This document shows, one piece after another, positions 85 to 60,924 of a DNA stretch of 64,000 nucleotides (position 1 is the first letter of the stretch; every line of letters starts with the position of its first letter). Source of the stretch: Cystobasidiopsis lactophilus. Taxonomy: Eukaryota; Basidiomycota; Agaricostilbomycetes; Agaricostilbales; Chionosphaeraceae. A model generated the notes under the pieces. It made no database searches. It was not told the DNA's origin and saw only the letters and a list, made by a program, of their open reading frames with translations. The stretch is from the NCBI GenBank assembly GCA_001599975.1, contig BCIO01000003.1, positions 558,001-622,000 of the forward strand, written 5' to 3'. Both the position numbers and the translations under genes were made by a program.

Positions 85-187
85 GCTTAGAGGGTGGCAC
101 GAGTCTAAAACGAAACCGCTTTGGTATAATTTTGTATCGTGGTGTGTAGTGTTGCAATTACAAGTCTCTCTAAAGTGATACACGCTT

Positions 188-1310
188 CTAGCCAAATTTC
201 TGTTCGAGGAAACAAAAGTTGAAGAGTGGACGCTGGGGAAGGATAGGCGTTAGAACTCACACTTTCTAGGAGAGCGTAAATGCTAAAGATCAAAGCCGAA
301 CTGCCGCCACTGCGGATGCAGGTGACGCCACAGCCTTCGTACAAGCCGACGAGGCCTTTCGATGCCAAGATCGAGCGGCCGGTGGCGAAGAAGCCCGGCA
401 TCTTTGCGCCGAGCACGCCGGTCTCTGGGCGCGTTTGGATGTTGGACTTGATGGTGTCGGCAGGGTAGAGCGACACAGTGTAGGAGATGCCAGCCAGTGC
501 GCCGGAAGCCAGGAGCTCGAAGATGGACAGGTCGCTCTTGGTTGCCGTCGGCGAGTGGCGCCAGGACAAGAACTGCCGGCACGCCAGCTCGTAGGCGACG
601 AACCAAGACATCGATCCGCCAGTCTCCCGCAGCAAGGTGCCCGTCTGGCCCAGCCACAGGCCCTTGAAGCCGTTCTCGCGCAAGACTTGGCGGGTGATGG
701 AGACTGGGCCCGGTGGCCGGAGAGCACCGCCGGCGAACTGGGGCGACAGCATCTGCACTTGCATCCGGCACTTGACGAGCTCGACCGGCGTCAGGACGTA
801 GGACACAGCGAGGCCTGCTGCTGAGCCGGCGCCGACGAGGTGGGAGATGGGCGTCGGGCCTTGGTAGGGAAAGAGCGAAGCCAACAGCTGTTGGGATTGG
901 TTGTAGACGACAAAGAGGGTGGCATTCTCAGCCATGGCGCCAGCGACAGGCATTGAGAGTCCCTGATTTGCTCCGTCAGCTTGGAGTGATCCGAGAAGCA
1001 AGCGAGGCGGACTCACTCGGTACAACCCACGCAGCCCTTCACCCTTGATGGTCGACGCAAAGCAGTTGAGCGGGCCGGTGAAGTGCAGTGGGCGGCCATT
1101 CTCCCAAGGCTGGGACTGAAGCCGTACTTTGACCAAATCGAAAGGGTGCTCAAAGCCCTTGGCGATCATGCCTGCCGTCTGCGATAGTTGGTTTTAGGAA
1201 CAGGAGTGCATTGCATGTACAAAACGAAGAGAGCCTACAGAGCCGTACAACACATCCTTCCAGGCCGGCCGCTCAAGGTGAGCCTGCGTATCTGGCTCCG
1301 TGCGTTCCAT
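188..1310 (-). CDS. Mitochondrial carrier family protein (ornithine/basic amino acid carrier-like)
   Basis: A solute carrier of the inner mitochondrial membrane. The three carrier repeats are visible through their signatures HPFDLVKVR, TPVELVKCR and YPADTIKSN (Px[D/E]xx[K/R]). The stretch ETGGSMSWFVAYE resembles the ornithine-carrier branch (yeast ORT1, human ORC1); substrate is inferred. The start is the ATG at 1310 (MERTEPDTQAHLERPAWK). I place introns at 1179-1238, 963-1016 and 200-260. The second restores GLYRGLSMPVAGAMAENA; the last has a GTTCTAACG branch site and leaves a four-codon final exon ending in KFG. The first donor, GTAGGC, is unusual. Total length is about 315 residues, normal for the family. 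No break is seen. Confidence 0.88.
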
Positions 1311-2598
1311 TTTGAAGAATCAAGCGGGTCGACCACGATGCCCTGAAGGAAGCCATGGCGCGAGAGTCAGCGTCGACGTTCCTTCACACCAGGTTGGTAT
1401 AGGGGAGAAGGATCAGAAAGCCGTTTAATATCACGCCGTGGCGCCTTTCTCTTCAAGAAGGACCTTCGCACGGCAGCTTGACTTTCGTAAGAGCCTCGCC
1501 TGCCACTTTCGCCTTTGCAAGCTAGTCATGACGGCTACAGCCCTCCATAATCGCCTTGCCAGCCTGTGCGAAAAGTCCAGACTCCCGAATGCGAACGAAA
1601 AGCACCACATAGAAGTCATTGAATGGATATACGAAAGTTTTCGTCTTGAACAGGGTGGTGGGAGAAGCTGGCGGATAGAAGGAGGAGAAAAAGGTCGCGC
1701 GTACATCTGCAAAGCACAAAGGTAAAGGTCAGCATCGAAGTCCGCTTTGCAAAATGACAATCAAGCTTGAGGAGGAGGAGGGATCAGTAGAATTGGTAAG
1801 TTTGGTAAAATGCAGTGTCTTCATTCTGTATTCAGAAGCAGAACTGAAAAATAGCTAAATCTCATCACGCAAAGCGGGTCGAAGGGGATGGGGGCACGAA
1901 GGAGGAAGATGGGCAGAGGACACGTACTGTTTTCACTCGGCCAGCATTCTTGACGTGACCTATAGACAGCAACACAGCAGTCAGCATCGAGTCCTTGGAA
2001 CCAAAAATGGAGGTCAAGGAGAGGGTCAGTTGGTAGTGCATAAAAAAGTCGGCATTGCGCCTCGTGGAGGGCTCGCGACATGATTTGATTCGTGATACCC
2101 GTCTCCGGGCGGTATCGTCTTGTGGAAAAGAGCGCAAACAAGAGCCTTCGACTTACTTGCTTGAGCTTAAGGCGGGGCAAGAGTCCGTTCTGCGAAAATT
2201 TGTGGCGAGCCCGAAATCTTTCGCGACTTGTGGTGGTTGTCGCCACCTTCTGAGAAGGCGTCTTTCTTCACGAACTGTCGTTGCCTGCTCCGCGGACCCC
2301 TTATGGAGCTTCGCTGAATGATATTTAAATGTGACGATGATCCGTTCGCCGCCAATCTGCCTGGGGCCAGAATCGGACTCAAGCGACTCGGCGCGACGAG
2401 CTGTGTTTCTGCAGGTCTTCGAAAGAATCCTGCTCATCAAGCCTGGTCCAAAAGAAGGACCCAGAGACTTCATCTGTTTTATTCTCGTTTGCGCCAGGAC
2501 CCGGGTCCCTCGTTCCTTGCCAGGATCCATCAACTGCCTCTCGCTTTAGGTCCCACCTCGACCTAATAAATACGTCGCGAGGCTCCCCAATTTCACAC
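1311..2598. other. Intergenic region with no supported gene
   Basis: About 1.3 kb between the divergent carrier gene and the first gene of the tandem array. Several overlapping frames of 60-140 codons exist on both strands, for example 1438-1725 on the plus strand, but none shows a recognisable motif or a coherent exon structure. It should hold both promoters. An AATAAATA box lies near 2564, about 35 bases before the ATG at 2599. Confidence 0.4.
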
Positions 2599-19267: not shown

Positions 19268-20737
19268 CTAGCCGAAGACATGGTCGCTGCCCCCAAACCA
19301 ATCCGACCCCCTACAAATTCGAATCAACATACGATGAGCAGCAAGCATATGAGCAGCGCACTTAAGATCCAGCTTGGAAACTTCGAGCTTGATGCCACGG
19401 AGCTGAGCCAACGACTTGAGTTGCTCCAACTCTTGCGCCCAAACTCTTCGCAGCGAGCCGATTATGCGCAAATCCAAAAGATGGAGGAGTGGCGTGCGCG
19501 ACACTCCATCGGCAAGAAGGCGGAAAAGAGAGTCGATAAGGGCGGATGCGTGCTCGTGGGGTAGAGCTGAAGGGGAGCTGAAGACTACCGATAAGGTGTG
19601 TAAATTCGGAAGTGAGACTGTATCAATCGAAAAGATAGAGTCGTGGCTGCTGGTGGAGGCTGGGGCCGGTAGACGGTACTCCATCGGTAAGGAGTGATGA
19701 TTGAACTGAATCACCAGCTCCTGCAAGACGGTGAGATGCTGCAGTGCGCTCCAGTCGGACACGTTGGACAAGCAAATCGCGCCCAAATTGCCAGAAGAGT
19801 ATGTGAAGCTCATAACGAGGCGTTTCAAGCTGGTGGGAAGGTCGGAGAGCGTTCTCTGCCAGTCGAGGAGCCGTCCTGGCCCGATCTGGGAGAATCGGAT
19901 GGTCATCTCCAAGGTGCCATTCCCACACGTCTCTTGCAACCATTCCTCCTCTTGCCGTTGAAAGAGCGGATGCTGTCCCTGGGTGAGTTGGATGCGGAGG
20001 GATCGAGCATGCAGCGCCGATGGACCAACGCGCCACTCGACCGTGTCCGCCCGGCCCACCAAGTAAGACCTGCCTTGGTAAACCAGGCGGCAGCAGGCTT
20101 TACTAGTGTTGTCGACGACAATCGTGCGAAGATTTGGTAGTCCATCCAACACGAAAGGGTTTTGGAGTGTGTAATGACCAGAATGGATCCTCAACTCTTG
20201 TAGCCAATCTTGCCGCCAAACGCTACTGTCAAGCAGGCTGGGGACGGCCGCGTTCCTCAAAAAATGCCAATTCGACGCATGCACGTCGAATTTGAGGTTG
20301 AGCCGACCGCGCCTGATAAACGCCGGGCAGGCTGAAATTGCTTCCAGGTAGTCCAAAATGCCATCGTCTTCAATCTTCATATCGACACACTCCACGTGAT
20401 CCAACTGTTGCCGTCCTTCGCGCAACAGTGACTGGAAGCCCGCTATGTTTTTAGTAGAGCTAGTTTCGTCGAGCCTGCGAAGCCTTGGAGCTGAGATGAC
20501 GAGGCGGCGCCAGACGGCAGGCGTGAGTGCCGCATGCAGCTTGCGATTTATCAGAAGGCATTCAAAGCCTTGACCGACCAGTCGCCACTGCAGAGGCTTC
20601 AAGGGCCGATATTGTCGCACGCCGCCAACAGCGACGAAGGCGTACGTGGAGTTGGAATAAGCGCATATTTTGGCATGAGCGTCAAGGTGGCCACCGATCT
20701 CCGCCAACAATTTGATTGGAAAGTCGTTGAGGAGCAT
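19268..20737 (-). CDS. F-box/LRR-like protein of the dispersed local family
   Basis: The first ATG in frame, at 20737, begins MLLNDFPIKLLAEIGGHLDA, an F-box-like start. The product has about 489 residues in one exon to TAG 19268. It shares with the genes at 27741, 34829 and 59581 the order of an N-terminal F-box-like motif, LTPAVWRRLVIS, a middle EQHPLF-like block (LTQGQHPLFQRQEEEWL), LLDWQRTLSDLPTSLKRLV, SSGNLGAICLSNVSDWSALQ and then LRR-like strands (DTVSLPNLHTLSVVF). F-box proteins usually pick substrates for SCF ubiquitin ligase; the target here is unknown. A GTG-started extension upstream of 20737 stays open but is not needed. Confidence 0.75.
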   Translation of the reverse strand: MLLNDFPIKLLAEIGGHLDAHAKICAYSNSTYAFVAVGGVRQYRPLKPLQWRLVGQGFECLLINRKLHAALTPAVWRRLVISAPRLRRLDETSSTKNIAGFQSLLREGRQQLDHVECVDMKIEDDGILDYLEAISACPAFIRRGRLNLKFDVHASNWHFLRNAAVPSLLDSSVWRQDWLQELRIHSGHYTLQNPFVLDGLPNLRTIVVDNTSKACCRLVYQGRSYLVGRADTVEWRVGPSALHARSLRIQLTQGQHPLFQRQEEEWLQETCGNGTLEMTIRFSQIGPGRLLDWQRTLSDLPTSLKRLVMSFTYSSGNLGAICLSNVSDWSALQHLTVLQELVIQFNHHSLPMEYRLPAPASTSSHDSIFSIDTVSLPNLHTLSVVFSSPSALPHEHASALIDSLFRLLADGVSRTPLLHLLDLRIIGSLRRVWAQELEQLKSLAQLRGIKLEVSKLDLKCAAHMLAAHRMLIRICRGSDWFGGSDHVFG

Positions 20738-22466
20738 GGCAAGGACAGGATCTGGCTGCCGTATTGAGCCATGCGTCGCGCAAGTGCGTATGTGGCACGC
20801 GTACCTTAGCACTTGACTCCAAACAAAGCCCGCTACCGTTAAAGCTCGGATGCAAAGCAGGAACGAGTTGCCGTCTCAAGTTGGACGGCCAAATTGGCGC
20901 TGCTCACCTCACGGTCATAGTCAAAATAGCTCCGCTCGTGAGGACGCAATAATAACATACCAAGTTCGATGATTACAAAGCACAGGAAAGCAGGCAGCTA
21001 GACAGCCAGGCAGCTCGGACCAAGTTGCAATGCGGGCCAAGCTTGAAGCGCGATGTGCCAGACTAGAGGCCGCCTGCGCGGCGAATGCGGCCATCGCGCC
21101 TCTGACTTGTGGCACTTCTCGCTATGTAGCTGTCGGTGAATATCAGATTGCAATGTCTTTTACAATGTACCAAGGAATTGGCCTAGAGCCGCCGGAAGAT
21201 AGATAGCGCATTAGCCAATGAGGTCTTTGGTGGCAAACGGCGCAGATCAGGACTGCATAACGTTCTGGAGATGCCATGGACTGTACTCACAGAGCCTCGA
21301 TGTGCCTAAAGAAATAGCCGGGGTGCATGAGTATCAAGCAACGGTACACCTGGCGCCTACAAGTGCTGCCAGGCCATAACACTAGCTTCACGTTTGCCCA
21401 TTAGAATGGCGGAGATAATGAGGAAATAGAAGCTGGTTCTAGTGACTAGGTGTAGCTGCATAATGAACTGGTGAGCGCGCGATAAGACAGTGAAGAGAGA
21501 TCGAGCCTGCCGGGCTACTGCTGCAATCTGACAGCAGAACCAAATGTGCGCTTGTGTTTTGCAGTTGACTGGCCGACCTAGAAGAATATCCTACTGTCTT
21601 CGACGTCAGCAGTGCCAAAGTAATGATAAAAGCCACGGGCTGAATGAACAGGGGTGGCATCTCTCCTGAACATTCAGACAAACCCGAAACACTGCTGTAA
21701 CGAGTGTCAGTTATCCTCTAGACGGTCTATGTCTATCACCCCACGACCAGAGGGCGCATTTGAGTTGCCTCTTCTTGGACAGCTCGTAAATAATTCACCT
21801 GCGGCAGGCGACCCTCGCTCTTTCACCGGGCAGGGAAGGCTCGATACTTTGTTTCGGAGAAGGCGGGCATGCACAGACGCGGTTAGAGACGGCAGGCAGG
21901 GATACAGGAGAGCTGGCTCCAGCGTAGCAATGGTATCTGGCATCGAACAAATTTCGTCCAACCTTGTTGCTCGCCGAGACTCTTTTGGTTGGTTCGAGAT
22001 AGCTAGACTCGGATAGAGACAGAAACAGAGGATACAGATAGGGCACGGGCGAGAGAAGGCAATCTCAGGTGTCGACAGGCAGGACGAAGCCCAACGCCAG
22101 AGGATATCGACCACAGGGATCGGAACCAAGATACACCACCAGTGATAAGTCTTGTGGAGGCAAACATAGACAGGTCAGGCACGAAGAGCCGACCAGCGGG
22201 GCGTCAACGAGAGCAGGACGAAGATGGGGCACGGAAATGACATCTTCGAACCTTTTCCGCCTTTCCCACCGACATAGATTTGTATAGAGCTTTCCAAGAG
22301 CGTAAGCAAGCAAGCAAGGAAGTGGTTGCAGTACTCCAACTACCAACACTCCAAATTTCGGCACAGCATTTCACGTGCCACAAAAATGGTCGCAGGGATT
22401 TCCATGTTTCTCAACGGATCGCTTAGCGAAGGGCAGACATTTCAATCAAAGGCGATATGGGTGCCA
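20738..22466. other. Gene-poor stretch of about 1.7 kb
   Basis: The longest stretch without a supported gene. Frames up to about 140 codons exist on both strands (such as 21707-22129 minus and 21654-22016 plus) but they overlap each other, show no motif and lack paired splice signals. I see no transposon terminal repeats, no microsatellite and no RNA gene. It could hold a non-coding transcript. Confidence 0.35.
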
Positions 22467-27740: not shown

Positions 27741-29281
27741 ATGTCGCTACTCCTGGACCGTTGCAGGCGATATCTGTCCTCACCTCTCACCTTGGACCCC
27801 ATAGGTGGCCGGAGAGGTGCGTTAAGCCGTTGTTGTTTGCCTGATCAGCCTCAGCTCACCTCGCGGAGCGCCTCACAGAAGACCGGAGCCAGCCCAGCGT
27901 GCTCATCACCAACCTGCCTATTGAGATCCTAGTCGAGATTGCGGGTTACTTGGGCAGCTCGGCTTACTTGTGCCCTGGATGGGAAAGGAAAGACGCGATA
28001 GCGTATCGTCCGCCTGGGCCATGGCGCTTGGACTGTCCGGGCTTCGCTATACTCCGCACCAGCCGCCTGTTCTACAGAGCATTCGCTCCGGTCCTCTGGG
28101 CCGAATTCTTCATCGACCTCCCCCATGATTCGCACCGGCGCAACGTGTGCTATTACCCGGAGACGCCTGACCAAATCGCTGCTCTGCAGGCGTGTCTTGA
28201 CCGACTCAACCGCCCACTTCAGTTTGTGAAGAAGCTTTGGATAGAGCTTCCGGGCAATTGGAACGACTCCAGCGACAAGGACTTCGACTATGTCAAAGCC
28301 ATCCTCTCCTCGCCCTCGTTCGCTGCCAACCGGCCCTCGGAGCTCTCCCTCCGGCTCTACGAGCCTCGTCGAAGTCAGACTACAGTTTGGCTGGGCTGTA
28401 ACGGATGGGCCAAGGACTGGTTGACGTCCCTCTGTCTCAGCTGCGGCCACGAAACAGCCCTATCGCCACCCATCTGTTTGGACTCGTTTCCGAGCCTGAA
28501 GGAACTGCATATCTTCGAGACCCCCTGCACTGTTCTCTACCACGACCGCATCTATAGCACTGGTGCGGAAGACCGATTAAGCTGGCAAATCAAGGACAAG
28601 AAGCTTTGGGCGAGCAACTTTTGGTTGTTCGTCGGCAACGACCACCCAATGCTGCAGCTTCAAGGGCCAACCTGGTTGCACGACACATTCGTTCCCAGAC
28701 CTGAAGGGATCAGTCGCCTCAAGCTGCGGTTCGACGACGACTTGCGGGCTCGACTCGATTGGGCACAAACGGTGTCGAGCCTATCGCCCGAACTAACGAC
28801 TCTCGACCTGACCATGAATTACGCTTCTGGAGACCTCGAGACGCTTCCGTTCTCGGACATAAGCGACTGGTCGACCTTCGGGCACCTTGCGGCTTTGACG
28901 AGGCTGTCAATCAATTTCAGCCACTACTGGCAGCTGCTCGCCGACGAGCCCATCCTTGCTACCCGAAGTGACGGTGTTCTATCCCTGCACACGTTGTCCA
29001 ATCCAGCTTTGAAGCACCTTTCTCTTCGGTTCAGCAGGCCGCCTAGTCAGCATGCCGTCGTCATGACCCAATCCCTCGTCAGTCTGGTCGATTCCCAGCC
29101 CATCCGCCTTCCCTCCCTTCAGCGCATTGATCTTACCATCAATTTCGCCGAGGAAGTACACTCGGCCGTAGCACTTGACCTTCTTGCACTCTCGGCGAGT
29201 GCCAAACGCAAGGGCATTCGCTTCTCATTTGCGCGCCATGGTCAGATCTTGCACGCTAGATCGTCCTCAAGCGTGTTCTAA
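27741..29281 (+). CDS. F-box/LRR-like protein of the dispersed local family
   Basis: The main frame has no ATG before its F-box-like motif VLITNLPIEILVEIAGYL. A 25-codon first exon from the ATG at 27741 (MSLLLDRCRRYLSSPLTL) joins it through a 62-base intron, 27817-27878 (GTGCGT...CACAG), in phase. The product is about 492 residues. Family landmarks are RTSRLFYRAFAPVLWAEFFI, LDRLNRPLQFVKKLWIEL, YHDRIYSTG, NDHPMLQLQGPTWLHD, RLDWAQTVSSLSPELTTLDL, SDISDWSTFGHLAALTRLSI and LRR-like strands to the end. The role as an SCF substrate receptor is inferred from the F-box-like motif; the target is unknown. The first exon is a model, not proven. Confidence 0.75.
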
Positions 29282-34828: not shown

Positions 34829-36470
34829 ATGGAACTCCCTACAATCGAAGCTGCCTTGCAGCGGACTTTGGAAGGCGTTCTGGATACACGTCTGACCCCA
34901 ATTTTGAACGACATTCAGAAGCGCTTGGATCGGATCGAGGCCGGTATGAAACCGGTGGAAGAACGGCGGCTGGACGTTTTCGAGGAGCCTCCGCCTCCGC
35001 CTCTGCCTCAACCAGTGCGTTGATCACTTCTGAACATGCTTCAGCTTGATACACTAACTCCAGTTGAGCCAGGTTCCCGCAGTTCTTCTCACAGACATGG
35101 CACCGGAAGTGCTGCAGCAAATCGGCAGCCACTTGATCATGAAAAGCGAGTCCTCTCTTCGCCCTCCCTGTATCGCACCTCCCCGTGGGAAAGACACCGA
35201 GCCTGCTTTGCGCTGGTATCTCGCGCTTCCCCCTCACTGTGCGGCCCTGAAGACATGCCGCAAGCTTCGCAGCGCGCTGACACCAATCTTCTGGCGTACC
35301 TTACAATTCGAAGTGCCTGCGCGTTACCCTCTCAACTTTCCAGAAAGCTTGAAGGCCTTGGAAGACATGTTATCTTGCCTCATGCATCCGCTTGGGCATG
35401 TGCGGCAGATTCATGTGATCTTCAACAAACGCTGCACTTTCGACTACCTGGAGTGCCTTCTTCGCTCGCCATATTTCAGCCACGGTAGCGAAGAGCGAGG
35501 GACGGACCTCCGCTTGGCATTTACAATTATCGGTTTCCCCGAGGAAGCACTTGTGCAGCTGCTCACAAGCGAAGTGTGGGACAAGAACATGTTGGAGCAT
35601 CTTTCGATTCGCAATGACTCGCTTGCTACGGGCAGTGAGCCCCAAGGCTATACTGCCCCCATCGACCTGAACCCTTTCCGCCATCTCCGCGAATTGCGGA
35701 TCAATATCAACGCTCTTCTTCTGTTTGGCGAAACCCTCTACACAAGCGAGCAGTGCAGGGAATTCCCATTGTGGCGAACGGAAGGCAACATTCTGCGCCC
35801 ATACCTACCCAAAGCCGAGATCAGCCTGGGCGGCTGGAACAGACATCCATTACTTGGACGGGAAGGACCAACTTGGTGGCGGACCCTCTGCAACCTTCAA
35901 TCTTCGGGGCCATCCAGCTTGACTCTGAACTTTGGTCAGGCGAAGACTCAGATCGATTGGCAGGACTTGATGGGGGGACTGTCGCCCACCTTGACATCGC
36001 TGACGTTGGGGTTTCGCTACAGTATGAACGACTTCGGCTCTCTTTGCTTGCACAACACCGTCGACTGGTCTCCTATTTCACATCTCGCAAGTCTGACGAC
36101 ACTGCGGATCCGATTTTACCCAGAAAACCCTGACTATTCCGACTTTCGTCCTTCCGCAACCTCTTTGACCGACGCGATCCTGAACCTGGACACGATCTCC
36201 TTGCCATGTTTGCGGGAGTTGTCCGTGCTGCTGAAGCCCACCTCCAGCGGGTCGACCGACTTCCCCGAATGCCACTTCGACGCCGCCACTGCCGCTCTTC
36301 TACGCCTCCTCCGCCAGGCGCCTTCCTCTCTGCCGTCTCTTCACCACCTCACCGTAGACTTCACGAGCAAGGGGCATTGGGTTAAAGCGTTGGGACATGA
36401 GTTGGTGACAGAGCTGCGGACTGCGGGCAACGAGTGTGGAGTGCAGCTGAAGATCGTGCCACCCGACTGA
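34829..36470 (+). CDS. F-box/LRR-like protein with an added N-terminal coiled coil
   Basis: Exon 1 (34829-35014) begins MELPTIEAALQRTLEGVLDT and contains a short heptad-like helix (LNDIQKRLDRIEAGMKPVEE) and a proline run (EPPPPPLPQP). A 49-base intron, 35015-35063 (GTGCGT, branch ACTAACTC, CCAG), joins it in phase to LSQVPAVLLTDMAPEVLQQI, the F-box-like motif. The rest follows the local family: CRKLRSALTPIFWRTLQFEV, RHPLLGREGPTWWRTL, QIDWQDLMGGLSPTLTSLTL, HNTVDWSPISHLASLTTLRI and LRR-like strands to TGA 36470. About 530 residues. The coiled-coil plus proline segment is absent from the other members and might mediate dimerisation; that is inference. Confidence 0.78.
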
Positions 36471-39641: not shown

Positions 39642-40693
39642 ATGGGTATCTGTACAGAGTTCAAGGGCCAGTTGAAGCTCGAAAGATGCGTGGATGACGC
39701 CACCCTAGCTTTACTGCAAAAACTTGGTGCGCTGCAGTCTTTGCAAAATCGCCATTATAAATTCTGCGAACCCCCCTAACTCAACATCTCCTCTATCTGG
39801 CTCGAAGGCAGCACCCGGCGTCTAATGCGCTCGGTAGAGGGATATGGGGTCGATGGCGAGTTCTACGGAGGTAACAATTTTGAGGGCGTAATCGACCAAT
39901 TGGAGTCACCGCAAACCCAGCCTAATCAACGTTGTGGGTGGATCGTGCTCGAAGATCGCAAGCATTTGGCGTGAGTCTCACTCATGACCCTGTCTACACG
40001 TCGCTCATGTTGTTTTGCCAGATTGGTTGGTAAGTCGCCCACGCTGTTATTTCAAGCCGTTAACATCGGATCGGCTCAGACGGCAAAACTTATTGCTACG
40101 TGGAATGGCTCGTCTACTTTCAAATGCTTCTACGATGGACCGACAATCATTTGGTCGGTGGTCGTATTGAGTGGCAGGGCGAAGAACCCTCGGATTCGGG
40201 CATCATCGAGATCAAGGCCGGCGTCATCCACGTTTACGCCGAAGACCCCCACTGTAGCTACTGTGGCAAAGCATTTCAAGGCTTGAACATCAGCGTCAAC
40301 GATGCTCCCTGCCCGGCTCCCACCACCACTACTCACGTTGTCCTCCGACCCGTTCCAAAGGCGGCTCGACTAACTTTGACGGATATGCCGTTCGATGTGC
40401 AACGCGACATTTTGTCGGCCTGCTCCCCTCGCTCAATGTTCAATTTGTCTTGGACCAACACGACGCTCTACAACTTGTGCGATGACGCCTTGTGCGGCCA
40501 AGCTGCCCGCCCCTTTTACCCCGCCACCTTCCCTCGGCTGACCAAGGAGCACCTGGTCCGCATTGCGGCCGCGACTTGTTTTCAGTGCGAGGGTGCTTTG
40601 TCCCGACAAGAAGACCATGTGTCAAGGAAATTGACCGCGTATCTGGGATTGAAAACCAGGTGGTGCACGGTTTGTCAACCGTGGAAATGCTGA
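39642..40693 (+). CDS. Bacterial-type unknown domain fused to an F-box-like motif and Cys pairs
   Basis: Exons 39642-39726, 39808-39970, 40022-40029 (8 nt) and 40080-40693 join in phase to give about 289 residues. The first 150 residues read MGICTEFKGQLKLERCVDD, STRRLMRSVEGYGVDGEFYG, QTQPNQRCGWIVLED, DGKTYCYVEWLVYFQMLLRW and GGRIEWQGEEPSDSGIIEIK. This follows, from memory, a widespread bacterial hypothetical-protein domain with TRRM, GEFYVGG, QPxLWCQW and EWLEYLI...GYxLNGEVxWQGE landmarks. Then comes a CSYCGK pair, an F-box-like LTLTDMPFDVQRDILSAC, and a C-terminal CFQC...CTVCQPWKC that could bind zinc. Function unknown. The four-exon structure shows it is a resident fungal gene. The first intron ends in an AAG acceptor chosen to fit phase. 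Confidence 0.7.
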
Positions 40694-41053: not shown

Positions 41054-43522
41054 ATGGAGGCTACAGCCATAGCGCGCGCGTCCGAGGCGTCGCTCAAGCC
41101 GGAGGAGCGAGCTGCCTACATTGCTGCATTAATCGACTGCCTGGCCCAGCCTGCGTCCGCGTCCAGTGAGCGCTGCTGCTGCCGTCACTAGAAGCCAAGT
41201 ACTCAAGCCAAGCGAAGCCTTGAAGCAACTGCAGGCGCTCAAGCTGCTCGGCCGCATCCCCTCTGGCTCCTCGGCACTGGCTTCCAGCAGCGCCCTGCGC
41301 GTGTTGTTGCAGCACGCCCGCTTGTCAGAACCGACCAGGCAGCCGACAGAGGAGCAGCTCGAAGCCTGGCGGGTCCTTTGCAACACGCTCAAGCTCCATG
41401 AAGAGGCCAGGCTGAGCTTGGAAGCTATCGACGGCGCCGTCGCTGCCGTGCTCTACAATGCCCTGGTGCGTTTAGCTCTCTCAGCATATCCTGTCTGGTA
41501 CGTTCTGAGCATTATGCACACACAGCCAAGCGTGTCGGCGCACCTGCAGTTCGTCGCCAGCCGGGCCTTGTTCCTGCTCTCCGTTAAGGCCGGCGAAGTG
41601 AACCGCACCCTAGTGAACGAGCTGGGAGCCGTCAACGTCTTCCAAGAGGTCCGTGGTTGCCTATGTCACAGTATCAAGCCTTGTTACTTAGGCCGTGCGT
41701 TCACGACAGACTCTGGGGTATTATGCCACCCAAGCCAAAGAATCCACCAATGGCCTTAATCAGGAACAAACGATGGCCTTAAGCGAGCACCTGAAGGTGA
41801 TCTACAATCTGGCCATCTTCTACCCTCGTCTGCTGGCTATCGATCCCAAGGCCTCCTCGGCCTCGTCGACTTTCTCCCCGGCGTCAACTTTGTCGCCGGC
41901 ATCCGCCTCGAGCACTCCAGCAGAGGCGAAATCGCCAATGGGTGCCTTGGGGAGGGGGTTGAGAACTGTGCTTTCGAAGATCCCCTCGCCCGCCACTTCC
42001 AACCAAGGCGGCTCCGGGTCTCGGCCTTCCAGCCCTTCGCCCTTGTCCCCAGCTTCCTCCTCATCCTCCACAACGTCGACTATGACCTCCACTCCCACGC
42101 TGTCCAACACTAAAAAGCACTCTAGGGCACCCTCAAAAGCAGTGGTGGTGGTGAACCGCAACCTGGACGCTTTGGCACCCGAGATCATCTCCCTGCTCCT
42201 CTCGCTCTCCTTCAAGCCGGAGCAAGACTTGGTGCCCCAACCTCCGCTCTCGCACGCCATCCACACCCTGTCCGAGTTGACCTGCAGCCAAGATTGGTTC
42301 AAGGCGACCTCCCTACCCTTGAACATGGTCCTCTGCGGCTGTGCTCTGCCCTCGACCTCTGCAGGGTCTAAAACGATCGACGATACGCTCCCACCCCTGC
42401 TGGCAAAGTTGACGGTCTTGCTGGATCGCTGCCTGGAGAACATATTCCCGGCCGTCATTGATCCGGACGACGAGGCTAACCGGAAACGAATCGAGAGGCT
42501 AACGGGAGGCGAGCAGGCAGAAGGGCTGGACTCGGAGCTGGCTCCTTTGCTGCTGCTGATTCGGAAGTGCGTGGTCGGCGATGAACAGGGCCGGAGCGGG
42601 CGAGGGCTGAGGGCCAGGTTGTTGAGTGATACAATGTGCGTCGACTTCCTTGACACGATCATTTCTTCGAATAGGAGCTGATGTGGCAGCTGCTGTCGCA
42701 CAGGTACGTTGTGGACTTGTTCTTTTCGGATTTTTTTCCCCTCCCCCCTAAGGCGAGCTGAATGCGCCTTCGCGATGTCAATGAACAGGTGCGTTGCTAT
42801 ACTGACCTTATCATCCCCGTAATAATAGGCTGATGCCAATTTTCGCCACGACACACAGGGATCGAACGGAACCGCTAACGAAGCACGAGAACCTGACCGG
42901 CCGCCTGGCTCGGCTGATGAACTCGGTCTACTTTTCGCACTGCAAAGTCGGAGCTGGCGAGCTGCTTTTCGCTCTATGCGGTCAAGATCGTGCGTCCTGC
43001 GTTCCACTTTGATCCCTCCTCGTTGCCGGGCTCATCTGGAATCATCGCTGGCCAACAGCTGAAGAATTGGCACGGTCGATTGGCTATGGCCCGGCTGCTG
43101 GCTTTCTAGTGTCCAACGGCATGCTAGTGCCTCCGCCTGAATCCTACCAACAGGCCGCGTTCGACTCCACCTCCCAACCTCGAACCGTCAATCCAATCAC
43201 TGGCGCCTACCCCTCGGCCTCTTCCTCCGCTAACGACGAACTGGAGAGTATGACAGACGATGAAAAGCTGGCAGAGGCCGAGCGCCTCTACGTGTTGTTC
43301 GATCGGATGGCCAAGACGGGGGTGATGTCGGTCGAGAACCCGCTGGTCAAAGCGAAGGAGAGCGGAAGGTTCCAAGAGTTGGACGAAGAGGAGATCAAGG
43401 AGGAAGTAGAAAGGCAGAAGCGAGAGGAGGACGAGGATGAACGGGAGGCGGAGGAGGAGATGAGGAGGTGGAAGGCTCGGATGAAGAAGGGTCCGACGGC
43501 TTCAGGGAGCGGGACTTCCTAA
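41054..43522 (+). CDS. RIC8: Synembryn/Ric8, guanine nucleotide exchange factor and chaperone for G-alpha
   Basis: A cytoplasmic armadillo-fold protein that folds and activates heterotrimeric G-alpha subunits. The ATG at 41054 gives MEATAIARASEASLKPEER. Helical repeats follow (SEALKQLQALKLLGRIPSGS, EEQLEAWRVLCNTLKLHEEA, LQFVASRALFLLSVKAGEVN, LSEHLKVIYNLAIFYPRLLA), then a Ser/Pro-rich low-complexity insert (about 41850-42110) and DALAPEIISLLLSLSFKPEQ. The end holds HENLTGRLARLMNSVYF, GYGPAAGFLVSNGM, the family signature MTDDEKLAEAERLYVLFDRM and an acidic Glu-rich tail to TAA 43522. Introns of about 50-80 bases split it; the ones near 42680-42860 isolate very small exons whose borders I did not fix. 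Confidence 0.88.
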
Positions 43523-58958: not shown

Positions 58959-59580
58959 GTGGTTGGTTTCCGGGTTTTTTGAAGAGGAAGGGCGGTTGGT
59001 TGTGGTTTATCTTTCTCGCTGGTGTGCAGCATCCCGCACACCAGACACCAAAAGGCAGAGGGGCAGCGCGCTTTCTCTCGTTTTCACTTTCTAGAGGAAC
59101 ATCATCATCTCCTTAAAAAAACGAAATCCTTTATCGCATCTTTCTCTTTCGCTTGTTGACTTTCTTTTTGCATGGCTTTCTCAAATCACTGTCCTTCCCA
59201 TAGATATTGCATTTCGCTTCTCAACCCAGAACCCGTCGGGCGAAACTGTTTTCGCCACCTGAGCTGCAATTCCCCGCTTCTTATCCGGGACCGTCGAGCT
59301 TGCGGCTTTGTTGCGCTCCATTGTTGCGCTCCATTGTTGACCAAAGCATATTACTTTACTTCCCCTTGCGGTCCTCGGTCGCTCTCAGAAGCGGCAAAGA
59401 CTGGTTCCTGCTCCAGGCACATTTGTTGCCACAAACTTCTTCGAAAGTCTGCCTCTCGACTTCTCAGCCTCTGGCCCCTTTGCTGTACCTTTCGGCTGAT
59501 TAATTACTAGTCAAGGTCGGTCATGCAGTGTGTTGACGGTCCATCGTGTCTCAAGCTGGCTTCCAGTCAAGGTCGGAAAG
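58959..59580. other. Spacer between FAD2 and F-box-like gene
   Basis: About 620 bases. It contains a 13-base direct repeat, TTGCGCTCCATTG, at 59311-59323 and 59324-59336. Frames at 59172-59510 have no recognisable motif. Confidence 0.45.
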
Positions 59581-60924
59581 ATGCCCTCGCTCCTGGACAT
59601 GCCGAGCGAAATTCTCGAAGAGATTGCGAAGCACTTGACAGAGGACATTAAACTGTTCACCGGGTACAAGAAGGGAGCCCTTGAAGCCGGTTTAGGCGGA
59701 CACAATGAAGAACAAGAGGACGACTCTATTGTTTTCCCGCCCATCAGCAACCCTAGACATTCTTCCAATCCCGCCAAATGGACCTTGTTAGGCGATAATC
59801 TACCGATGATGGCGACAAGTCGAACGTTCCTCGAGGCTTTTGTTCCCGCCATCTGGCGAACCCTTGCCATCCGCTTGCCAGCCGAGTTTCACGCCACAGA
59901 AGACTCTCCGCATCTCCTATTGGCTTTGCAAATGTTTTTGGGTCGACAGCAGCATCGATTGAAGCACGTCAAGTTCCTTTCGCTGCATCAAAGTGGCCTC
60001 GACGACTCTACTTTCGCTGCTATCGTACTTGCATCGCCCGCCTTCCTAAAGAGGTCCGACTTCGAGCTTGCTGTCAAGTTGACGGGGTTTGGCTCAAGGG
60101 ATATCGACTGCTTGACGATCATGAGAGTCGACGATTTCTCTGGGGCGTTCGATCTGGACCGGTTCCAAGGTCTCAAGAGGTTCAGAATAATCGATAGTGA
60201 CGCTTGCATGCTGCGGTATGGAGGTCAGACCTGGGACATTGGTGATTCGGACGACATTTCCTGGCTGGCCGCTCATCGTGCGCTGTACGCGACGTCAATA
60301 CGCATTCGCGGTAAAACCACCCACCCTCTGTTTTTCCGAGGGCTCGACTGGCTTCAGCGGCTGGCAGCGCCTCATCCCTGGGGTCCCAGCGATTTCAAAC
60401 TTGACCTTCCAGCGCATCTGGCTCCTCGGCTCGATTGGCGGCAAACTATGTCTACTCTGCCATCGACACTGGAGCGCCTCTCGGTTCAGTCAAGCTACGG
60501 CCGCGGCAATTTGGGTACCCTCGCCTGGGAATCTGTATCGGATTGGTCGGCATTGTCCCATCTGGTCAACCTGAAGTGCTTGTCTATTGGTTTCGCCCAT
60601 CGCATTCGCCCTACACATCCAGTGGAGTCCCCAAACGACATGATTTTGCAAATCGACACACTGGCTCTACCCAACGTCACGCGCTTGATCCTGCTTGTCG
60701 GGTCGGCTTATGAGCCTCTGCCTCTACAGCATGAATCAGCTCTTCTTGACTCGACATTGCGCCTCATCAATCAAACTCATTCTACATGCCCCTCCCTGCG
60801 CTACCTTCGGATAGTCGTGTCACCTTCGGCACCGGGCTCCTTCCATTCGCAAGTGTACGATCAACTGGAATCGGCGGCGCACCTTCGAGAAATCGCTTTA
60901 GATATTTACGAGAGCAGGGTATGA
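59581..60924 (+). CDS. F-box/LRR-like protein of the dispersed local family
   Basis: The ATG at 59581 opens MPSLLDMPSEILEEIAKHLT, an F-box-like motif at the extreme N-terminus. One exon, about 447 residues. Family landmarks in order are TSRTFLEAFVPAIWRTLAIR, HRLKHVKFLSLHQSG, KTTHPLFFRGLDWLQRL, RLDWRQTMSTLPSTLERLSV, RGNLGTLAWESVSDWSALSH, NLKCLSIGFAH and DTLALPNVTRLILLV, ending with REIALDIYESRV. It would act as a substrate receptor of an SCF ubiquitin ligase if the F-box works; the target is unknown. In-frame upstream codons stay open, but no better start is seen. Confidence 0.78.
   Translation: MPSLLDMPSEILEEIAKHLTEDIKLFTGYKKGALEAGLGGHNEEQEDDSIVFPPISNPRHSSNPAKWTLLGDNLPMMATSRTFLEAFVPAIWRTLAIRLPAEFHATEDSPHLLLALQMFLGRQQHRLKHVKFLSLHQSGLDDSTFAAIVLASPAFLKRSDFELAVKLTGFGSRDIDCLTIMRVDDFSGAFDLDRFQGLKRFRIIDSDACMLRYGGQTWDIGDSDDISWLAAHRALYATSIRIRGKTTHPLFFRGLDWLQRLAAPHPWGPSDFKLDLPAHLAPRLDWRQTMSTLPSTLERLSVQSSYGRGNLGTLAWESVSDWSALSHLVNLKCLSIGFAHRIRPTHPVESPNDMILQIDTLALPNVTRLILLVGSAYEPLPLQHESALLDSTLRLINQTHSTCPSLRYLRIVVSPSAPGSFHSQVYDQLESAAHLREIALDIYESRV

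What the first reader, a model, noticed from the sequence alone, without database searches (positions are those of the whole stretch)
39642..40693. Bacterial-type hypothetical domain joined to an F-box-like motif and Cys pairs
The first half follows a domain I know only from bacterial hypothetical proteins (TRRM, GEFYVGG, QPxLWCQW, EWLEYLI, GEVxWQGE landmarks), and the second half has an F-box-like motif LTDMPFDVQRDILSAC with CxxC pairs before and after. Three introns, one flanking an 8-nt exon, show it is settled in a fungal genome. A bacterial-type module coupled to a possible ubiquitin-ligase adaptor would be a new architecture, either an old horizontal transfer or a conserved unknown fold.
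Basis: partly seen in the sequence, partly recalled or inferred. Interest (0 to 1): 0.75.

Follow-up and report, generated by a model that had tools for sequence, protein, structure and literature searches.

The report
Phage-type domain fused to fungal F-box
A fungal gene, one of three related copies, joins a protein domain typical of bacteria and their viruses to an F-box and a cysteine-rich tail, which suggests that a fungus captured a microbial domain and may use it to mark proteins for destruction.

Summary
Window 39642-40693 (+) is a four-exon gene (289 aa) with an 8-nt exon. Two paralogs in the genome (named C3 and C2 after their contigs) share its exon layout. Exon 4 alone runs from inside the N-terminal domain through the F-box to the stop, so the fusion is not a splicing artefact.

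The N-terminal domain belongs to a large prokaryotic/viral family: 3350 proteins at E<=1e-3, loci in bacteria, one archaeal bin and viral contigs, a giant-virus fold match. No Pfam or NCBIfam model reached its cut-off over the domain, and no PDB sequence matched. The C-terminal half has an F-box (over Pfam's cut-off in C2, below it in C3 and the window copy) and two CxxC pairs. dN/dS is well below 1 in both halves. The fungal trio is one clade (100/100); its donor is unresolved.

Best reading: a captured prokaryotic or viral domain joined to an F-box/zinc module, probably the target-binding part of an SCF ubiquitin ligase. The architecture is well supported; the function is inferred. The window copy has lost 6 of 21 family-invariant residues. 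Spread among other fungi is untested.

The parts
39642..39726 (+). exon 1 (85 nt), start of the N-terminal domain
   Evidence: same layout in both paralogs; in-frame TGA 5 and 10 codons upstream of the ATG in the C3 and C2 copies, read by eye
39727..39807 (+). intron 1 (GTGCGC..AG, 81 nt)
39808..39970 (+). exon 2 (163 nt), middle of the N-terminal domain
39971..40021 (+). intron 2 (GTGAGT..AG, 51 nt)
40022..40029 (+). exon 3, 8-nt microexon (ATTGGTTG); in the C3 copy it encodes the family-invariant Trp (of WDG), here replaced by Leu
40030..40079 (+). intron 3 (GTAAGT..AG, 50 nt)
40080..40693 (+). exon 4 (614 nt with stop): end of the N-terminal domain, CxxC, F-box, two CxxC pairs, one open frame
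39642..40249 (+). phage/bacterial-type N-terminal domain, residues 1 to about 142 (spliced)
   Evidence: profile match 111.5 bits over profile positions 1-145 of 147; phrog_38666 E 1.8e-5 over residues 61-133
40253..40264 (+). first CxxC (CSYC, residues 144-147) just after the N-terminal domain
40376..40486 (+). F-box-like stretch, residues 185-221
   Evidence: PF00646 positions 1-37 of 43, below the cut-off here; over the cut-off in the C2 paralog
40577..40588 (+). second CxxC (CFQC, residues 252-255)
   Evidence: both cysteines invariant in the three copies
40664..40675 (+). third CxxC (CTVC, residues 281-284)
   Evidence: both cysteines invariant in the three copies

Best explanation
Shown: a fungal gene of 289 codons, with two paralogs, encodes a prokaryotic/viral-type alpha/beta domain (residues 1 to about 142), then a CxxC pair, an F-box-like stretch and a C-terminal segment with two CxxC pairs. 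Inferred with good support: the domain entered the fungal lineage by horizontal transfer from a bacterium, a phage or plasmid, or a large DNA virus; it was joined to the F-box/cysteine module before two gene duplications; and spliceosomal introns arose in the transferred part. Inferred, less certain: the protein is an SCF (Skp1-cullin-F-box) substrate receptor. The F-box would bind Skp1, the C-terminal cysteines would hold zinc, and the captured domain would take the place that WD40, LRR or Kelch domains take in other F-box proteins, binding a protein or nucleic-acid ligand and presenting it for ubiquitination. The window copy is a diverged member whose captured domain has lost part of its conserved core. 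My odds: architecture and transfer about 0.9, SCF function about 0.4; the confidence figure is for the whole statement.
For: Exon 4 carries both halves in one open frame. In this genome, searches with the whole protein, with the C-terminal half and with a family-like N-domain query all lead to the same three loci, each with both halves (the tool warns that counts are lower bounds). Exon layout and the 8-nt exon are conserved in all three copies. dN/dS is 0.18-0.25 in the N half and 0.13-0.30 in the C half over three pairs, with synonymous sites near saturation. Prokaryotic/viral family: 3350 proteins at E<=1e-3; 68 loci; 175 viral contigs encode a relative, 80 kept. The fungal trio is monophyletic, 98 SH-aLRT and 100/100, and lies outside the starred 6-row group (99/89) that holds the Streptomyces and cyanobacterial rows. 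F-box over the Pfam cut-off in the C2 copy. A Skp1 gene is present in the genome.
Against: No expression, Skp1-binding or ubiquitination data. The F-box scores below the Pfam cut-off in 2 of 3 copies, the window copy included. The AlphaFold model of exon 4 is unusable (pLDDT 41), and a profile of the exon-4 parts found no F-box protein among PDB sequences (one chance-level row, E 8.8), so neither the F-box fold nor a zinc site is confirmed by structure. The window copy keeps only 15 of 21 family-invariant residues. The domain's function is unknown in prokaryotes too, so its role as a target binder is analogy.
Confidence: 0.5

Rival explanations
1. The fusion is real and retained, but the F-box-like half does not work in an SCF ligase: the protein is a Skp1-independent or zinc-dependent binder of nucleic acid or protein.
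For: F-box below the cut-off in 2 of 3 copies; three CxxC pairs; weak PF22289 match (E 0.0034) and weak zinc-ribbon matches, all below their cut-offs.
Against: The C2 copy's F-box is over the cut-off in two searches, and the F-box stretch aligns without gaps in all three copies.
Confidence: 0.3
2. The window copy is a decaying duplicate of a functional C3 copy.
For: It keeps 15 of 21 family-invariant residues against 21 of 21 (C3) and 20 of 21 (C2), and has a longer end branch, 0.93 against 0.21 for C3 and 0.65 for C2.
Against: Its reading frame and splice sites are intact, it keeps as many of 25 near-invariant residues as C2 (16; C3 keeps 19), and dN/dS against C3 is 0.18 (N half) and 0.30 (C half). 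Part of that constraint could lie on the C3 branch.
Confidence: 0.3
3. The domain reached the fungus through a giant virus or another eukaryote rather than directly from bacteria or phages.
For: The best fold match in the viral library is a Tupanvirus protein (Foldseek E 4.8e-8, probability 1.00, 28% identity). In the quick tree the sister row is P0198 (SH-aLRT 88), a protein whose leader looks eukaryotic to me.
Against: The careful tree leaves both P0198 and the fungal trio unplaced and flags P0198 as a long branch. A viral-contig scan with P0198 confirmed no relative. The 28 viral loci found with the fungal domain were not classed and their tails were not scanned for an F-box.
Confidence: 0.3
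4. Chance resemblance or a wrong gene model.
For: The window copy alone is divergent, and a full-length search with it found nothing at E<=0.01.
Against: Paralogs with the same exons; 53% identity of the C3 copy to P0058 over 144 residues; best E 2.9e-40 with the three-copy profile.
Confidence: 0.02

Closest known systems
PHROG phrog_38666 (phage protein family, unknown function)
   Same: Window N-terminal domain matches at E 1.8e-5 over residues 61-133; 6 of 6 prokaryotic/viral family members tried match at 4.8e-13 to 2.9e-21.
   Different: It covers mainly the second half of the domain, and carries no function and, as far as seen here, no F-box.
DUF1281_C / Api92 / YubB ferredoxin-like family (PF18406)
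   Different: No sequence-profile support: hhalign score 14.2 against up to 16.7 for 30 column-shuffled controls. Kinship not shown.
F-box proteins (PF00646), SCF substrate receptors
   Same: F-box over the cut-off in the C2 copy; F-box beside a separate domain.
   Different: The partner domain is prokaryotic/viral in type and lies N-terminal to the F-box; Pfam reported no WD40, LRR or Kelch repeat in the three copies.
Prokaryotic and viral fusions of the same domain
   Same: The domain also stands in front of other modules: DnaJ in P0155 and the ArdC N-terminal domain in a Bacillus pumilus plasmid protein, and CxxC tails in 13 of 339 prokaryotic or viral rows, some of them duplicates.
   Different: Pfam found no F-box in the 71 members of A4 or in the 8 proteins; the rest of the 3350 were not scanned.

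Membership tests
F-box protein (PF00646) | Match over Pfam's curated cut-off (20.5 bits) | tested here: inconclusive
   Window copy 14.5 bits whole protein and 16.1 for the half, not over the cut-off; C3 copy 18.2, not over; C2 copy 23.6, over. The three copies align without gaps in this stretch.
F-box protein (PF00646) | Three-helix F-box fold that binds Skp1 | not testable with these tools
   Exon 4 model has pLDDT 41; no binding assay. A Skp1 gene is present in the genome.
SCF substrate receptor | Separate target-binding domain beside the F-box | tested here: inconclusive
   A separate domain is present, but that it binds a target is not shown.
phage/bacterial domain family (phrog_38666 and relatives) | Significant profile match over the whole domain | tested here: met
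   111.5, 166.9 and 150.4 bits for window, C3 and C2 copies over profile positions 1-145, 1-145 and 2-146 of 147.
phage/bacterial domain family (phrog_38666 and relatives) | 21 residues invariant in 71 prokaryotic/viral members | tested here: inconclusive
   Kept 21 of 21 in C3, 20 of 21 in C2, 15 of 21 in the window copy.
DUF1281_C / Api92-like ferredoxin-like family (PF18406) | Profile similarity above chance | tested here: not met
   hhalign 14.2 against shuffled controls up to 16.7, with 14 DUF1281_C-type proteins; no PF18406 match in the Pfam scans.
DUF1281_C / Api92-like ferredoxin-like family (PF18406) | Same fold | tested here: inconclusive

The most novel reading that the evidence does not exclude
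A fungus turned a domain carried widely by phages, plasmids and giant viruses into the recognition half of a family of SCF ubiquitin-ligase receptors, so that the eukaryotic degradation machinery is aimed by a viral/bacterial module. All three introns lie in the captured half, including a pair that cuts out an 8-nt exon over one of its most conserved motifs.
Probability: 0.35. Interest if true: 0.75.

Novelty: new variant of a known kind. Interest (0 to 1): 0.52.

Why it matters
The prokaryotic/viral family is large (3350 proteins at E<=1e-3), yet in the scans made here no Pfam or NCBIfam model reached its cut-off over the domain and no solved structure matched by sequence, so its function is an open question. 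F-box proteins usually carry a partner domain that binds a target. If the F-box here works, the fungal fusion makes that question directly testable: find what the C3 copy binds or degrades. The gene family would also be a case of horizontal transfer followed by fusion, duplication and intron gain.

Full report
Gene model. The window gene reads ATG at 39642 to TGA at 40693 with exons of 85, 163, 8 and 614 nt and three GT..AG introns. Its protein of 289 aa has two paralogs in the same genome, called C3 and C2 after their contigs: C3:794192-795242 (296 aa) and C2:490784-491862 (305 aa), with exons of 85/172/8 and 97/172/8 nt before the last exon. The introns sit at the same places and in the same phase. 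In the C3 and C2 copies an in-frame TGA stands 5 and 10 codons before the ATG (read by eye), so the start at MGYTT is enforced there, and it is where most of the prokaryotic proteins also start. Exon 4 is a single open frame that begins inside the N-terminal domain and ends after the last cysteine pair. The two halves therefore cannot be parts of two genes joined by a wrong splice.

N-terminal domain. A search with three fungal and four bacterial domains (A2) found 3350 proteins at E<=1e-3 among 3839 candidates, of which 120 were listed. The C3 copy is 53% identical to P0058 over 144 residues. GTDB contigs gave 68 loci, among them contigs titled Candidatus Lokiarchaeota, Saccharibacteria and Enterococcus, many cyanobacteria and many Actinomycetota. 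IMG/VR gave 175 encoding contigs, 80 kept. Plasmids gave 13 records; one, Serratia at E 0.7 on tra genes, is probably chance. The family rings phrog_38666. No Pfam or NCBIfam model reached its cut-off over the domain in the members scanned, and no PDB sequence matched at E<=10. In 201 of 208 listed relatives the domain starts within the first 10 residues. It also stands in front of a DnaJ domain and of an ArdC N-terminal domain.

C-terminal half. The F-box scores 14.5 bits in the window copy, 18.2 in C3 and 23.6 in C2, where it passes the 20.5 cut-off; the genome-wide scan listed the C2 copy among 22 F-box places, but not the other two. Cysteine pairs lie at 144-147, 252-255 and 281-284, and these cysteines are invariant in the three copies. 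Two or more CxxC in the last 42-49 residues occur in 1.4, 1.5 and 5.3% of shuffles of the same letters, so conservation, not frequency, is the argument for a zinc site. The model of exon 4 with three rows is unusable (pLDDT 41), and the exon-4 profile found no F-box protein in the PDB sequences.

Selection and history. NG86 dN/dS is 0.18, 0.20 and 0.25 (N half) and 0.30, 0.26 and 0.13 (C half) for the pairs W-C3, W-C2 and C3-C2; dS is 0.7-2.1, so the ratios are rough. Searches of the genome with either half find only these three loci. The fungal trio is one clade, with W and C3 as sisters (96/75). The quick tree of 230 of 360 rows put P0198 next to it (SH-aLRT 88); the careful tree did not resolve this, and its bootstrap had not settled. 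The careful tree used 75 of 360 rows, picked by me from the neighbourhood of the fungal trio in the quick tree plus named outgroups. The donor is open. All three introns lie in the N-terminal part; since prokaryotic genes lack spliceosomal introns (general knowledge), they were probably gained after the transfer and before the duplications, unless the domain came from another eukaryote.

State of the window copy. Of 21 residues invariant in 71 prokaryotic/viral members, C3 keeps 21, C2 keeps 20 and the window copy 15; of 25 near-invariant residues they keep 19, 16 and 16. The lost ones include the Trp that the 8-nt exon encodes in the C3 copy. The frame is intact.

Mechanism. The simplest working model is an SCF receptor: the F-box on Skp1 and the captured domain as target or ligand binder, with cysteines shaping zinc sites. 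A Skp1 gene is present. Every functional step is inferred. What is shown is the architecture, its conservation in three copies and the prokaryotic/viral kinship of the first half.

Limits. The protein database names uniref and nr among its sources, but how many fungal proteins it holds is unknown, and no other collection here holds fungi. The full-length profile found no full-length relative among its 120 listed hits, so the spread and novelty of the fusion among fungi are unknown. No transcript or binding data exist here.

Noticed in passing
window 19268-20875 (-), 27845-29281 (+), 35058-36470 (+), 59500-60924 (+): Four long open frames of 470-535 aa with F-box-like starts (by eye). A search with the last one finds 46 places at E<=1e-5 in the genome, all four of these included, 33 of the 46 on contig C3 at 0.07-0.8 Mb and 3.1-3.4 Mb; some may be pieces of one gene. 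It looks like an expanded, clustered gene family around the finding. Pfam sees only weak, below-cut-off LRR and F-box-like matches in one of the four.
   Followed up: partly
window 41692-42681 (+): Downstream open frame matches Ric8/synembryn, a guanine nucleotide exchange factor (PF10165, E 8.7e-14).
   Followed up: no
window 105-1193 (-): Mitochondrial carrier protein (PF00153, E 4.6e-49).
   Followed up: no
window 1781-1873 (-): C/D box snoRNA snR61 (Rfam RF00476, 60.9 bits).
   Followed up: no
L095, L114, L122, L126-L145 and others: In viral contigs the domain gene often lies within about 6 kb of other short families that start MGLDM (21 viral loci), MGQYY (17) or MPNWC (13); many of these contigs are near-identical copies of one virus. 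An MGLDMW gene also stands just upstream in two Enterococcus plasmids.
   Followed up: no
L058 3525-5700: An Amycolatopsis contig appears to hold two or three copies of the domain in neighbouring open frames; the third match is weak (24 bits).
   Followed up: no
L017 6001-6495: The Enterococcus sp. M190262 plasmid copy of the domain gene is broken by an in-frame stop, while the copy of E. faecalis plasmid pEK4S (L018) is intact.
   Followed up: no
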